Positions 24,834 to 56,365 of a DNA stretch of 64,000 nucleotides are shown here, piece after piece. The position numbers and the translations under genes are program-made. Below the pieces are notes generated by a model. That model was not told where the DNA came from and did no database searches. It was given only the letters and a program-made list of their open reading frames with translations. Position 1 is the first letter of the stretch. Each line of letters starts with the position of its first letter. Source of the stretch: Phycisphaerae bacterium. GTDB taxonomy: Bacteria > Planctomycetota > Phycisphaerae > UBA1845. Location: positions 124,001-188,000 of the forward strand of contig JAJDDQ010000066.1 of assembly GCA_029260215.1 (NCBI GenBank), read 5' to 3'.

Positions 24834-24905
24834 TCGAGGCGTTACTGATGTCCGGTGTATCGCCGTTTTTCGTCTTGCCAATGCCATTGCGTGCCGTCGC
24901 GCGTA

Positions 24906-25039
24906 GGGTGCATCCAAATCTGGGTGGCACGGTTTGGCGCGGCCAGGCCGTGGAGCTCCGCAACTCCCACGGCCTACCGACTGCGCCGGTAGACCGTGCC
25001 ACCCAGCATTACGAATGGCCACCCGTATTGTGATGCCCC
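24906..25039 (+). repeat. Palindromic MITE-like element, copy A
   Basis: About 134 bp, near-palindromic over its whole length. The ends are GGGTGCATCC and the complement of ATGCCCC. The inner arms are GGCACGGTTTGGCG and CGCCGGTAGACCGTGCC, around a centre GGCCGTGGAGCTCC. It is about 90% identical to copy B at 25751-25886. No coding capacity; it has imperfect termini and no visible target duplication. Confidence 0.85.
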
Positions 25040-25127
25040 TTCGCACGTACGCGAAACGCGCGTGCTCTTGTTGCGCCTTGGGTGTTCGCATAGGCTTCTT
25101 CTTTCTCAACGGAGGCGGAGAAGGCGT

Positions 25128-25745
25128 GTGAGTGCGGAGTTGTCTCTTACCAACAAGTCGGCGGATGAATTACTCGGCTCGCTGCTCGTCCTGGCCCGTT
25201 CGATCAACCATGTTCTCGAAAAGCGAACGGTTCAGGAATCGACTCGTTTGCCTCTTTCTGTCTCGAAGGTTCAACTCCTGCGGCTGCTGGAACAAGGGGG
25301 CGAGCAAAATTCAACACAGATCGCCCGCTACCTCTGCGTCAGCAAGCCGGCTGTCACACAGATGCTCGACGCGCTGGTTCGTGCCAAACTCGTTGTGCGC
25401 AAAACACAGGTTCGCGACCGTCGCGAAGTCGGCTTGAATCTTACTGCCGATGGAAAGAAAACGATTCGTGACATTCGTCGCAAGCAGAAGCAGTTCGCAC
25501 GCTCTGCCGTACGCGAGTTTGCCGACCGGGATGTTCAGCAGATGATCGCCATGATGAAGCGCACCGCCGCCGGGCTGGTTTCCGCCGATCGCTCGTTCGA
25601 CGATTTTTGCCTGCAATGCACCGCACACGGCGACGGTGTGTGCATTCTCGCGGTCGGCAAAGCCGGTTGCCCGTTCACGCAACACGCGGAACAGGCACCG
25701 AATTCCACCCCAAAGCCCCCCAAACCCAAGCGTTCGCGGTCCTAA
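25128..25745 (+). CDS. MarR-family transcriptional regulator with C-terminal cysteine cluster
   Basis: Start GTG 25128 follows GGAGGCGGAGAAGG (25111-25124) and gives 205 aa. Residues about 10-150 form a MarR-type winged helix: the recognition region (TQIARYLCVSKPAVTQMLDALVR) is followed by the wing, where VRKTQVRDRREVGLNLTADG is a typical DRRE wing. After the dimerisation helix there is a C-terminal extension with four cysteines (DDFCLQC, GDGVC, AGCPF), then a Pro/Lys tail. The extension could bind metal or an Fe-S cluster, or sense redox; that is inference. The gene is flanked by two copies of the same palindromic element, and copy B is inserted at the stop codon. Target genes unknown; no divergent partner is seen. 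Confidence 0.85.
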   Translation: MSAELSLTNKSADELLGSLLVLARSINHVLEKRTVQESTRLPLSVSKVQLLRLLEQGGEQNSTQIARYLCVSKPAVTQMLDALVRAKLVVRKTQVRDRREVGLNLTADGKKTIRDIRRKQKQFARSAVREFADRDVQQMIAMMKRTAAGLVSADRSFDDFCLQCTAHGDGVCILAVGKAGCPFTQHAEQAPNSTPKPPKPKRSRS

Positions 25746-25750
25746 TAATT

Positions 25751-25886
25751 GGGTGCATCCCAATCTGGGTGGCACGGTCTGGCGCAGCCAGGCCGTGGAG
25801 CTCCGCAACGCCCACGGCCTACCGACTACGCCGGTAAACCGTGCCACCCTGCACTGCGAATGGCCACCCGTTTTGGGATGCACCCC
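25751..25886 (+). repeat. Palindromic MITE-like element, copy B, with target-site duplication
   Basis: About 136 bp. Terminal inverted repeats GGGTGCATCCCAA and TTGGGATGCACCC are perfect; the inner arms match copy A. It is flanked by TAATAAT at 25743-25749 and again at 25887-25893 (CCTAATAAT if the shared Cs are counted). This looks like a target-site duplication, and the left copy includes the TAA stop of the MarR gene. Confidence 0.88.
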
Positions 25887-25980
25887 TAATAATCCGCACA
25901 CCGGCCGCTTCGTTGACCCGCATTGACCGCGCGCGTACCATCCACGCCCCGTAGCCGGTGGCCGAGGCCGGAAAGACGTC

Positions 25981-32799: not shown

Positions 32800-32815
32800 C
32801 GCATGTTTGACGATC

Positions 32816-33585
32816 GAAACGGGGACGCAGCTAGTTATCGCGCCGCGCGCTGGTACTCTTGGCTATTCTCGGGCGACCTTCCGAGCGGAGTGATGCGGTC
32901 AGGCCCAGACGTGTGGCCGTTCGCTTCTGCCACGACTCGTGGCCGAACGGCTGACTCCTGGCGATACTAATCTGGAACCGCGCGCGCTCCTTCGCGGAGA
33001 TGGGTTTGTTGACCACTTGCACCCAGTTCCGTGGCCGATCGAATGGCCAATCGCTCAGCAACGACCGCAAACGATCATCGCCATTGCGACGCGCCCACAG
33101 GCTGCCCCATCGCCAATCCTCGGCCCGTTCGGTCATGTTGGCGGTCAGCGCGTTTCGCTCGACATACCGGCACACGTTCAGGAAATGCTCGTCACGCTGG
33201 ACCGGGAAACTCTTGAACCGCCCCTGGTACAATGGGCCGCAGCCCACCGTCCCGTGTGCTACGTGCCAGCGCATGACATGTGTGTGCGTCAGCCAGCGCA
33301 GAAAGGCCGTCAATTCTCCGTCTTTCCGCGGCCAAATCACGAAATGCCAGTGGTTGCGCATCAGACACCAGGCGAGGATCCGAGTTGGGAACCGCTCGTG
33401 TGCCTCCAGCATCACGCGCTCGAAGGCTCCATAATCCGCCTCTTTGCGAAAAAGCGGCAGACGCGCCACGGCCCGGTTCAGCACGTGATACACCAATCCG
33501 CCCGGTGCTACTCTCGCTGTTCTCGGCATGCCCGGAGGCTATCACAAGCAAACAATGGCGTCAATACTAGCTGCGTCCCCGTTTC
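32816..33585 (-). mobile_element. RAYT transposase unit bounded by perfect 20-bp inverted repeats
   Basis: The 20 bases at 32816-32835 (GAAACGGGGACGCAGCTAGT) are repeated exactly in reverse complement at 33566-33585. They enclose one REP-associated transposase gene, whose TAG stop lies within the left repeat. No target-site duplication is visible at the outer edges. The 770-bp unit separates the Pro-rich lipoprotein from the S74 gene. Confidence 0.8.
32831..33529 (-). CDS. REP-associated tyrosine transposase (RAYT, Y1/HUH family)
   Basis: A 232-aa single-domain HUH endonuclease related to IS200/IS605 TnpA. It should nick and rejoin single-stranded DNA at palindromic REP sequences. The metal-binding HUH motif is MRNHWHF (His60 and His62), and the likely nucleophile is Tyr122 in RYVERNAL. 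The start MPRTARVAPGGLVYHVLNR, GPLYQGRFKSFPV and WRWGSLWAR are typical of RAYTs. The C-terminal extension after residue 170 is basic. All catalytic residues look intact. The several REP-like palindromes elsewhere in the window are candidate substrates. Confidence 0.92.
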   Translation of the reverse strand: MPRTARVAPGGLVYHVLNRAVARLPLFRKEADYGAFERVMLEAHERFPTRILAWCLMRNHWHFVIWPRKDGELTAFLRWLTHTHVMRWHVAHGTVGCGPLYQGRFKSFPVQRDEHFLNVCRYVERNALTANMTERAEDWRWGSLWARRNGDDRLRSLLSDWPFDRPRNWVQVVNKPISAKERARFQISIARSQPFGHESWQKRTATRLGLTASLRSEGRPRIAKSTSARRDN

Positions 33586-33599
33586 AATCCCAAATATAC

Positions 33600-37971: not shown

Positions 37972-37985
37972 ACCATTAGGCTTGG

Positions 37986-38070
37986 CACGGGTTTGCCACC
38001 CGTGTGTCCATCGGAGAAGAAACCAGTGTTATGTGGGCCACTATTGTCCGCACCGGTTGAAAACCGGTGC
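37986..38070 (+). repeat. REP-like hairpin pair between dacB and the EamA gene
   Basis: Two hairpins: CACGGG-TTTGCCA-CCCGTG (37986-38004) and the perfect GCACCGGTT-GAA-AACCGGTGC (38050-38070). The same two stem sequences recur, in the other order, at 46604-46657. Confidence 0.8.
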
Positions 38071-38112
38071 CACACGGAATAGCCACTTTCGCTAACGGAC
38101 TGCCAGCTGATC

Positions 38113-46603: not shown

Positions 46604-46657
46604 GTGTGGCACCGGTTTCTAACCGGTGAATACACGGGTTGAAAACCCGTGCCACAC
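46604..46657 (+). repeat. REP-like double hairpin (REPIN-like)
   Basis: Perfect 9-bp ends GTGTGGCAC and GTGCCACAC enclose two hairpins: CACCGGTT-TCT-AACCGGTG and CACGGGTT-GAA-AACCCGTG. The unit lies 15 nt after the PLA2-like gene and 20 nt before the next start. It shares stems with 37986-38070 and the GTGGCACGG core of the MITE-like pair. Confidence 0.85.
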
Positions 46658-53772: not shown

Positions 53773-54648
53773 GTGAAAGCGAAATCCAAACCAATGTTGA
53801 ATGCACTCCTTGCATGGGCAACATTGGCCGTCGCGATATTTGCGTGGTCGGGGGCGACCGTGAGCGCGGAGGTATTCTCATGGGAATGCAACTCCCTTCC
53901 CGTGGATGGAGGTTGGACGTTTCTCGGCGAATTCTGCGAACCCACGACATGGATCGCTGATGGCTCGTACTTTCAGGAAGTGGATGACGATACCTGCCCC
54001 AATGAACCCGTCGGTGAGAGCGAAGGTTATCGTCGCGAATTGGTCGATTTTCTGGACCATCCGCAATTCTGGGTAGAGTGGCGCGTGGAGGGCGACGGCC
54101 CTGCGTCCGAATTGTTTGCAGGTGCGCCAACGGCGTTGGGGCTCGCAAATTCGTTCGGAATCAGCTACACCTTTTTCATTGCCCGCGACATGGCCAAGCT
54201 GAATCGCGACAACCTGCTTCCAATCATTTTCGCGACGTTCGATGCGGGCGTCGCACACACGCACCGCCTGGAACTTTTCGGCGACGAGTTGTACGCCTGG
54301 TACATCGACGGCGATCTTGTCGATTCCGGAGTTCCGGAAGGCCCGTTCCCGTCATTCGACGCGTTCATCGTATGGGCTGGCTCCTCCTGGCATGAGCCCG
54401 CCCTGAATCGCTGGGACTACATTCGCTACGGCGACCTTCAAGAACCGTTCTCCGGCGATTTCGATTCCGACGGCGACCGCGACGGACGCGACGCTTTCTA
54501 CTTCGCCGAGTGCATCGCCGAGCGCGGCAACGGTCCCGGCGCACCCGCCGACCCCGGCTGCCCGTGGGCCGACATGGACGCCGACGGCGACGTGGACTTC
54601 GCCGACTTCGGCCAATTCCAACGCGCCTTCACCGGAAGCGACGAGTGA
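53773..54648 (+). CDS. Secreted EF-hand-tailed protein, tandem paralogue 1
   Basis: GTG 53773 follows GGGGAAA by 8 nt and gives a signal peptide (KAKSKPMLNALLAWATLAVAIFAW, cleavage after TVSA); 291 aa. The mature protein starts EVFSWECNSLPVDGGWTFLG and contains SYFQEVDDD, FWVEWRVEGDGPASELF, TFFIARDMAKLNRDNLLPII and HTHRLELFGDELYAWYIDGD, a laminin-G or concanavalin-like sandwich pattern (inference). SWHEPALNRWDYIRYGDLQE leads to a terminal EF-hand pair (GDFDSDGDRDGRDAFYFAEC; DMDADGDVDFADFGQF). First of three adjacent paralogues; its stop overlaps the next start (GTGA). Confidence 0.82.
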   Translation: MKAKSKPMLNALLAWATLAVAIFAWSGATVSAEVFSWECNSLPVDGGWTFLGEFCEPTTWIADGSYFQEVDDDTCPNEPVGESEGYRRELVDFLDHPQFWVEWRVEGDGPASELFAGAPTALGLANSFGISYTFFIARDMAKLNRDNLLPIIFATFDAGVAHTHRLELFGDELYAWYIDGDLVDSGVPEGPFPSFDAFIVWAGSSWHEPALNRWDYIRYGDLQEPFSGDFDSDGDRDGRDAFYFAECIAERGNGPGAPADPGCPWADMDADGDVDFADFGQFQRAFTGSDE

Positions 54649-55490
54649 TTCGGCACCTCTGTGGGCTGTGTCTGCTCCAACTCTCTTGCGGGGCGACCGT
54701 GAACGCGGAGGTATTCTCATGGGAATGCAACTCCCTTCCCGTGGACAGTGGTTGGATGTTTCTCGGCGAATTCTGTGAACCTACGACATGGATCGCTGAT
54801 GGATCGTATTTTCAAGAAGTTGACGACGATTCCTGTCCCAAGGAACCTGTCGGTGAAAGTGAAGCATTCGAGCGGAGCTTGGATGATTATCTTGCGAGCG
54901 CACAATTCTGGATCGAGTGGCGAGTTGAGGGAAACGGAAATACTTCCGAGCTGATTTTTGGAGCACCCGCAGCGTTGGGAATGGGAGACCCCTTTACCGG
55001 TGTGAATTACACGTTCGTTGTGGCACGGGACATGGCCAAGCTGAACCGCGGCAACCTGCTTCCAATTATCTTCGCGCCATTCGCTGCAGGTGTCGCACAC
55101 ACGCACCGCTTGGAACTTCTTGGTGACGAATGGTACGCATGGTACATTGATGGTCATCTCGTGGATTCTGGTATGCCATCAGGGGCGTTTCCCTCGCGTA
55201 TCGCGACGCTGACTTGGTTGGGCCGTTCGTGGCATGAGCCCGCCCTGAACCGCTGGGACTACATTCGCTACGGCGATCTTCAAGAACCGTTCTCCGGCGA
55301 TTTCGATTCCGACGGCGACCGCGACGGGCGCGACGCTTTCTACTTCGCCGAGTGCATCGCCGAGCGCGGCAACGGCCCCGGTGCACCCGCTGACCCCGGC
55401 TGCCCCTGGGCAGACATGGACGCCGACGGCGATGTAGACTTCGCCGACTTCGGAACGTTTCAACGCACCTTCACCGGAAGCAACGAGTGA
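54645..55490 (+). CDS. Secreted EF-hand-tailed protein, tandem paralogue 2
   Basis: GTG 54645 overlaps the previous TGA in a GTGA. The 281-aa product has a signal peptide MIRHLCGLCLLQLSCGATVNA and then EVFSWECNSLPVDSGWMFLG. It is the most diverged of the three in the middle (AFERSLDDYLASAQFWIEW, IFGAPAALGMGDPFTGVNYT), but the last 85 residues are almost the same as in copies 1 and 3, and DNA identity there is nearly complete. The longer 54510 frame is not used because its upstream part overlaps copy 1 in another frame. Translation probably depends on coupling, as no ribosome site is visible. Confidence 0.8.
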   Translation: MIRHLCGLCLLQLSCGATVNAEVFSWECNSLPVDSGWMFLGEFCEPTTWIADGSYFQEVDDDSCPKEPVGESEAFERSLDDYLASAQFWIEWRVEGNGNTSELIFGAPAALGMGDPFTGVNYTFVVARDMAKLNRGNLLPIIFAPFAAGVAHTHRLELLGDEWYAWYIDGHLVDSGMPSGAFPSRIATLTWLGRSWHEPALNRWDYIRYGDLQEPFSGDFDSDGDRDGRDAFYFAECIAERGNGPGAPADPGCPWADMDADGDVDFADFGTFQRTFTGSNE

Positions 55491-56365
55491 TCTGGCATCT
55501 CTGCAGGTTGTGTCTGCTCCAACTCTCTTGCGGGGCGATCGTGAACGCGGAGGTATTCTCATGGGAATGCAACTCCCTTCCCGTGGATGGAGGTTGGACG
55601 TTTCTCGGCGAATTCTGTGAACCCACGACATGGATCGCTGATGGCTCGTACTTTCAGGAAGTGGACGACGATTCCTGCCCCAAGGAGCCCGTCGGCGAGA
55701 GTGAGGCCTACCGTCGGGAATTGGTCGACTTTCTGGACCATCCGCAATTCTGGGTGGAGTGGCGCGTGGAGGGCGATGGCCCCGCCTCCGAGTTGTTTGC
55801 AGGTTCGCCGACGGCGTTGGGGCTCGGGACGTCGTTCGGAATCAATTATACCTTCTTCGTTGCCCGCGACATGGCCAAGCTGAATCGTGACAATCTGCTC
55901 CCAATCATTTTCGCGCCGTTCGATGCGGGCGTCGCACACACGCACCGCCTGGAGCTTTTCGGCGACGAGTTGTACGCCTGGTACATCGACGGCGATCTTG
56001 TCGATTCCGGGGTTCCCGAAGGCCCGTTCCCGTCGTTCGACGCCCGCATCACATGGGTTGGGTCGTCTTGGCATGAGCCCGCCTTGAACCGCTGGGACTA
56101 CATTCGCTACGGCGATCTTCAAGAACCGTTCTCCGGTGATTTCGATTCCGACGGCGATCACGACGGACGCGACGCTTTCTACTTCGCCGAGTGCATCGCC
56201 GAGCGCGGCAACGGCCCCGGCGCACCCGCCGACCCCGGCTGCCCTTGGGCCGACATGGACGCCGACGGCGACGTGGACTTCGCCGACTTCGGAGCGTTCC
56301 AACGCACCTTCACCGGCTCCACCGACGAGGCTGACGCAGGCAACGGCAGCAACGGCGGCGAGTAG
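55487..56365 (+). CDS. Secreted EF-hand-tailed protein, tandem paralogue 3
   Basis: GTG 55487 again overlaps the previous stop as GTGA; 292 aa. The signal peptide (MIWHLCRLCLLQLSCGAIVNA) is like copy 2, but the mature domain is closer to copy 1 (YRRELVDFLDHPQFWVEW, FAGSPTALGLGTSFGINYT). It therefore looks like a mosaic of its neighbours. The EF-hand tail is followed by an extra Asn/Gly/Glu-rich end (DEADAGNGSNGGE) absent from the others. Role unknown; co-translation with copies 1 and 2 suggests they act together. Confidence 0.82.
   Translation: MIWHLCRLCLLQLSCGAIVNAEVFSWECNSLPVDGGWTFLGEFCEPTTWIADGSYFQEVDDDSCPKEPVGESEAYRRELVDFLDHPQFWVEWRVEGDGPASELFAGSPTALGLGTSFGINYTFFVARDMAKLNRDNLLPIIFAPFDAGVAHTHRLELFGDELYAWYIDGDLVDSGVPEGPFPSFDARITWVGSSWHEPALNRWDYIRYGDLQEPFSGDFDSDGDHDGRDAFYFAECIAERGNGPGAPADPGCPWADMDADGDVDFADFGAFQRTFTGSTDEADAGNGSNGGE

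What the first reader, a model, noticed from the sequence alone, without database searches (positions are those of the whole stretch)
25743..25893. A mobile palindromic element inserted at a stop codon with a visible target duplication
Copy B (25751-25886) has perfect terminal inverted repeats and is flanked by TAATAAT on both sides. The left TAATAAT includes the TAA stop of the MarR gene, so the insertion kept the stop intact. A second copy (24906-25039) sits just upstream of the same gene, so marR is bracketed by a pair. This looks like a non-autonomous element family (MITE-like) whose mover is unknown.
Basis: seen in the sequence. Interest (0 to 1): 0.62.

Follow-up and report, generated by a model that had tools for sequence, protein, structure and literature searches.

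The report
Miniature transposon carrying a REP doublet
The palindromes beside the marR gene are two copies of a 135-bp hitch-hiking transposon. Its moving enzyme (an ISKra4-type transposase) was identified in related bacteria but was not found in this genome. Its cargo, a pair of REP-like hairpins, changes far more slowly than its ends.

Summary
Copy B is 135 bp (25751-25885). It is flanked by a 9-bp target duplication, CTAATAAT(T/C), whose left copy contains the marR stop codon. Copy A (24906-25040) has its own 9-bp duplication. The genome holds at least 40 copies. Over 37 aligned copies, left and right flanks agree only at a 9-bp register (z=13.9, about 0 at most other lengths), and the agreement fades as copies diverge. 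It is a MITE.

In a relative of the same family (G002) this IS carries the MITE's two ends, 24/27 identical each and in the right polarity. Its split copies pair up by exact 9-bp duplications. No such transposase was found in the window's genome, so the MITE looks orphaned there.

Inside the ends lie two inverted REP-like hairpins. The same REP doublet also occurs in this genome inside a second repeat with unrelated, TA-ended termini. REP cores diverge about 3-4 times more slowly than the ends. They are also the landing site of an IS110-type element at some 20 places.

Verdict: a new member of a known kind (MITE). The REP cargo is the unusual part.

The parts
25751..25885 (+). MITE copy B, 135 bp
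   Evidence: folds as one long hairpin, z = -7.5 as DNA and -8.7 as RNA
25742..25750 (.). left 9-bp target duplication CTAATAATT (contains the marR stop TAA 25743-25745)
25886..25894 (.). right 9-bp target duplication CTAATAATC
25751..25777 (+). left end; in the family consensus 24/27 identical to the transposase-N-terminal-side end of the G002 ISKra4-type IS
25859..25885 (-). right end; in the family consensus 24/27 identical to the transposase-C-terminal-side end of the same IS
25768..25798 (+). REP-like unit 1: GGTGG head + palindrome CACGGTCTGGC-GCA-GCCAGGCCGTG
25811..25849 (-). REP-like unit 2, inverted
24906..25040 (+). MITE copy A, 135 bp, in the gap between the SpoIIE-domain gene and marR, about 87 bp before the marR start
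24897..24905 (.). left 9-bp target duplication of copy A, TCGCGCGTA
25041..25049 (.). right 9-bp target duplication of copy A, TCGCACGTA
24923..24953 (+). REP-like unit 1 of copy A
24966..25004 (-). REP-like unit 2 of copy A
25128..25745 (+). marR-family regulator gene lying between the two insertions (context, not part of the element)
   Evidence: PF01047 E=2.6e-12; ORF list

Best explanation
Copies A and B are independent insertions of a 135-bp MITE. About 27 bp at each end derive from an ISKra4-family (p-MULT4, Mutator-superfamily DDE) insertion sequence. An ISKra4-type transposase acting in trans bound the GGGTGCATCCCA...GGGTGGC ends, excised or copied the element, and joined it to a 9-bp staggered cut; repair of the cut made the 9-bp duplication. 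At copy B the cut fell across the marR stop codon, and the duplication kept the stop. Between the ends the element carries two inverted REP-like hairpins. No ISKra4-type transposase was found in this genome, so the MITE family is probably immobile there now. Its ends are decaying while the REP cores are kept or homogenised. Shown here: repeat anatomy, copy number, 9-bp duplications, end homology to the IS, 9-bp duplications of the IS itself, absence of the IS in the assembly, slower REP divergence. Inferred: the transposition chemistry, action in trans, and the reason for REP conservation.
For: At least 40 copies in the genome. Flanks agree only at 9 bp (z=13.9; 7 exact and 15 at 8/9 or better of 37) and the agreement falls with copy divergence (Spearman -0.50, P=0.0017). 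The same ends on MITEs of other sizes and interiors in related Phycisphaerae MAGs, ten of them with exact 9-bp duplications. Full-length IS with these ends, 1513 bp in G016, whose 364-aa ORF matches NF033572 transpos_ISKra4 at E=2.5e-52 (below the curated cut-off). In G002 the two IS ends are GGGTGCATCCCATCCTGGGTGGCG and GGGTGCATCCCAAATTGGGTGGCG. MITE left end matches the N-side end 24/27 and the right end the C-side end 24/27; crossed comparisons give 19-20/27. Contig-split IS copies pair by 9-bp flanks: 5 exact pairs and 1 with one mismatch, over G002, G077 and G016. Known members of this superfamily have 18-39 bp IRs and 8-9 bp duplications and occur in Planctomycetes (PMC3942029).
Against: No ISKra4-type transposase was found in the window's own genome, so the mover is inferred from relatives in other genera. 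The transposase scores below NCBIfam's curated cut-off (178 vs 205 bits). No transposition was observed. A multi-copy IS can be lost from a MAG assembly, although the TIR-bearing contig ends of G000 that were read are explained by another IS inserted in the MITE.
Confidence: 0.92

Rival explanations
1. The element is a REPIN/BIME (paired REP sequences) moved by a REP-associated tyrosine transposase (RAYT, HUH type), and the outer inverted repeat is only an extension of the hairpin.
For: The interior is two inverted GTGG-headed palindromes; related REP units occur alone or paired in other genomes of the order and outside the MITE in this genome. The genome has four Y1_Tnp genes.
Against: HUH tyrosine transposases do not make target duplications (established knowledge), and the 9-bp duplication is clear. 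The four Y1_Tnp genes have other flanking repeats and no copy of this REP close by. The outer ends belong to a DDE insertion sequence.
Confidence: 0.03
2. Copies A and B are the ends of a composite transposon that moved marR as a unit.
For: Two copies in the same orientation, 845 bp apart, on either side of marR.
Against: Each copy has its own 9-bp duplication, and the outer flanks of the pair (TCGCGCGTA / CTAATAATC) do not match. With roughly 65 copies in 5 Mb, about 0.7 pairs this close are expected by chance (own calculation).
Confidence: 0.02
3. The element is kept next to genes as a regulatory or terminator hairpin, and its spread is only secondary.
For: Strong hairpin; REP cores diverge 0.046 against 0.136 for the outer ends over 34 copies (Wilcoxon P=3.5e-5), 0.052 against 0.221 in the older half; copy B sits directly at a stop codon.
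Against: No compensatory changes beyond shuffled expectation (12 seen, 14.8 expected), so no sign that an RNA fold is selected; no preference for gaps between ORFs could be shown (P=0.22). Does not explain the ends or the duplications.
Confidence: 0.1

Closest known systems
ISKra4-family insertion sequences (p-MULT4, Mutator superfamily; Guerillot et al. 2014, PMC3942029)
   Same: Both 27-bp ends with the right polarity, GGG terminus, 9-bp duplication, presence in Planctomycetota
   Different: 135 bp without a transposase gene; the interior is not IS sequence but a REP doublet
Bacterial MITEs such as NEMIS/Correia, RUP, ERIC, Nezha, MITEAba12 (lists in PMC3733652 and PMC10969869)
   Same: 70-300 bp, TIRs, target duplications, no coding capacity, many copies, strong hairpin
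   Different: Parent IS family is ISKra4, for which no MITE paper was found in the held library; interior is a REP pair also present in a second repeat family
REP / BIME / REPIN repeats with RAYT transposases
   Same: Core of two inverted GTGG-headed imperfect palindromes; attacked by IS110-type elements as REPs are (PMC1525189)
   Different: 9-bp duplications and DDE-type ends; no RAYT in this genome is flanked by this REP

Membership tests
MITE (non-autonomous DDE-transposon derivative) | short, multi-copy, no coding capacity | tested here: met
   135 bp; at least 40 copies
MITE (non-autonomous DDE-transposon derivative) | terminal inverted repeats shared with an autonomous element | tested here: met
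   24/27 at each end with the G002 IS
MITE (non-autonomous DDE-transposon derivative) | target-site duplication of fixed length | tested here: met
   9 bp, z=13.9
MITE (non-autonomous DDE-transposon derivative) | mobilised in trans by the partner transposase | not testable with these tools
   inferred; no experiment
ISKra4 (p-MULT4) as parent IS | transposase related to the ISKra4 family | tested here: met
   NF033572 E=2.5e-52 for the G016 transposase, best of four families, but below the curated cut-off
ISKra4 (p-MULT4) as parent IS | IR of 18-39 bp and duplication of 8-9 bp | tested here: met
   about 24-bp IRs; six IS copies paired by 9-bp flanks, five exactly
ISKra4 (p-MULT4) as parent IS | autonomous copy in the same genome | tested here: not met
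   no match in G000 with the family model or a relative's transposase
REPIN / BIME moved by a RAYT | RAYT gene flanked by the same REP | tested here: not met
   four Y1_Tnp genes with other flanking repeats
REPIN / BIME moved by a RAYT | no target duplication (HUH chemistry) | tested here: not met
   9-bp duplications
REPIN / BIME moved by a RAYT | paired inverted palindromes with a conserved short head | tested here: met
   GTGG-headed units, inverted
Composite transposon around marR | target duplication at the outer ends of the pair | tested here: not met
   outer flanks differ; each copy has its own duplication

The most novel reading that the evidence does not exclude
One REP doublet travels as cargo inside two unrelated MITE shells in the same genome: ISKra4-type ends with 9-bp duplications, and TA-ended TAGTGC... 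ends. It stays nearly unchanged while the shells decay, and it is the homing site of an IS110-type element. MITE transposition would then be a second route, beside RAYTs, by which REP sequences spread, with the REPs rather than the transposon being what is selected or homogenised.
Probability: 0.35. Interest if true: 0.6.

Novelty: new member of a known kind. Interest (0 to 1): 0.42.

Why it matters
How REP sequences spread in genomes that lack a matching RAYT is unclear. Here a REP pair rides on a DDE-type MITE whose mover can be named and tested. The case also shows a layered system: an ISKra4 derivative scatters REP doublets, and an IS110-type element then lands in them, which is why many contigs of this assembly end inside the element.

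Tried and rejected
An IS630-like gene beside a TIR in OFTM371 (L128) looked like a partner, but it starts at about base 74 of the stretch and occurs without the TIR elsewhere, so it is a nested insertion. The large inserts next to the TIR at G000 contig ends looked like an autonomous element but are IS110-type insertions into the REP core. The NF033572 search found nothing in G000. Viral contigs hold no copy. Covariation gave no support for RNA structure. Preference for gaps between ORFs was inconclusive in this GC-rich genome.

Full report
What is there. The window lies in a 4.97-Mb draft genome of 88 contigs (window = G000:C63:124001-188000). Relatives carrying the same ends are Planctomycetota/Phycisphaerae MAGs. 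Copy B is 25751-25885, copy A 24906-25040. Each is GGGTGCATCCCA + 4 nt + GGGTGGCA..., two inverted REP-like hairpins, and ...TGCCACCC + 4 nt + TGGGATGCACCC. The terminal repeat is 23 nt with 87% complementarity, not perfect. Copy B folds as one long hairpin (z -7.5 as DNA, -8.7 as RNA). MarR (PF01047) runs 25128-25745 and its TAA stop lies inside the left duplication of copy B.

It is an insertion. The genome holds at least 40 copies, plus copies broken at contig ends. In register, the flanks show perfect 9-bp duplications in seven copies (for example gcgacggtg, ttccgccgg, aggtggaac, tcaccaagg, ctgagtatt, tccaaaaat, cggtggagc) and 8/9 in eight more, including A and B. Against shuffled pairings the 9-bp register has z=13.9, while most lengths from 4 to 12 give about 0. 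The match falls with divergence of the copy (Spearman -0.50, P=0.0017). Copies A and B have different duplications, so they are two events and not a composite transposon. With about 65 copies in 5 Mb, roughly 0.7 pairs this close are expected by chance (own calculation).

Distribution. Among 60 relatives no other genome has a comparable full-length copy (best 77%, G029). The ends are widespread: the pattern GGGTGCATCCCANNNNGGGTGGCA hit 41 stretches, all in Planctomycetota/Phycisphaerae or unclassified MAGs. There it bounds MITEs of 122-472 bp with other interiors, ten of them with exact 9-bp duplications.

The mover. ISKra4-family transposases have GGG ends and 8-9 bp duplications (the GGG end recalled; IR and duplication lengths from PMC3942029). 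An NF033572 search over ten genomes led to a transposase fragment in CSMAG_2662 that ends next to GGGTGCATCCCCAAAAGGGTGGCGATT. A protein search over 51 genomes of the family gave a full-length 1513-bp IS in G016, with ORFs of 90 and 364 aa. The larger matches transpos_ISKra4 at E=2.5e-52, below the curated cut-off. Two ORFs resemble the ISMich2 subgroup, where a -1 frameshift joins them, but this was not tested. In G002, of the window's own GTDB family, the IS ends lie at many contig ends. Pairing these by the 9 bp outside the TIR gave three exact pairs in G002, one exact and one near pair in G077, and one exact pair in G016: the IS itself makes 9-bp duplications. The MITE's left end fits the N-side IS end 24/27 and its right end the C-side end 24/27; crossed comparisons fit 19-20/27. 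G000 has no match to this transposase.

The cargo. The core is two inverted units, GGTGG + CACGGTCTGGC-GCA-GCCAGGCCGTG and its partner. The core unit occurs 74 times in G000 with up to 3 mismatches (control 0). Twenty of the places outside the known MITEs were read: many form a second family with the same doublet and other ends, TAGTGC..GAC...TGATGAGTCG / CATCGAATGACG...GCACTA, starting and ending with TA. Over 34 copies the outer ends diverge 0.136, spacers 0.190, REP cores 0.046 (Wilcoxon ends vs REP P=3.5e-5); in the older half 0.221, 0.233 and 0.052. Double compensatory changes do not exceed shuffles, so conservation acts on sequence, or copies are homogenised. None of the four Y1_Tnp (RAYT-like) genes has this REP within about 1.5 kb.

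A second mobile element in the cargo. Eight contig ends break at GACCGTG^AAACTATGAAGCGAG, followed about 100 nt later by an IS110 DEDD transposase start (PF01548 E=5.5e-13). Twelve matches of another end, ten of them at contig ends, break at GGTGGCA^TCTATGAGCGAGTC (11 of 12) or GTGCA^TCTATGAGCG. REP targeting by IS110-type elements is known (PMC1525189).

How it works, graded. Shown: anatomy, duplications, homologous ends, mover in relatives, its absence from this assembly, slow REP divergence. Inferred: movement in trans by the ISKra4-type transposase, past activity while the IS was present in this lineage, and the reason REP is kept. A role for copy B at the marR 3' end is possible but untested.

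Novelty. The element is a MITE; no MITE of ISKra4 parentage was found in the held literature, which lacks most subscription journals. The REP doublet in two different shells is the part a specialist would want to follow.

Noticed in passing
G000 contig ends: C22, C45 (both ends), C8, C29, C27, C68, C36 and C4 (both), C56, C20, C84, C61, C55, C19, C47, C41: IS110/IS1111-type insertions at one fixed point of the REP core, with similar subterminal inverted sequences at the two ends; candidate bridge-RNA/seekRNA system with a REP target. C11 and C14 carry the same end inside the contig.
   Followed up: partly
L216, L218, L221-L222, L224, L226-L228, L231, L233-L235: Second repeat family in G000 with the same REP doublet inside unrelated TA-ended termini (TAGTGC...GCACTA), perhaps an IS630-type MITE; mover not sought.
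   Followed up: partly
L066 (C11:10597-10847): MITE copy holding a fragment of the IS110-type end; the junction lies in CACGGTC, a heptamer present both inside the IS and in the REP target, so a deletion between the two is likely.
   Followed up: no
window 33152-33496 (-), arms 32812-32844 and 33557-33589: Y1_Tnp (IS200/RAYT-like) gene flanked by an inverted repeat GAAACGGGGACGCAGCTAGT; a near relative with the same arms at G000:C34:25608-25952.
   Followed up: partly
window 37983-38075 and 46604-46654: Another short palindromic repeat pair (TGGCACGGGTTTGCCACCCGTG / CACCGGTTGAAAACCGGTGCC), a different REP-like family.
   Followed up: no
window 53851-56365: Tandem repeats of about 840 bp, 77-92% alike, in a coding region.
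   Followed up: no
G016 (several contigs): Further repeats with ends GGGTGCATCCCGCGGATCGTGGCA about 650 bp apart, probably larger non-autonomous relatives.
   Followed up: no
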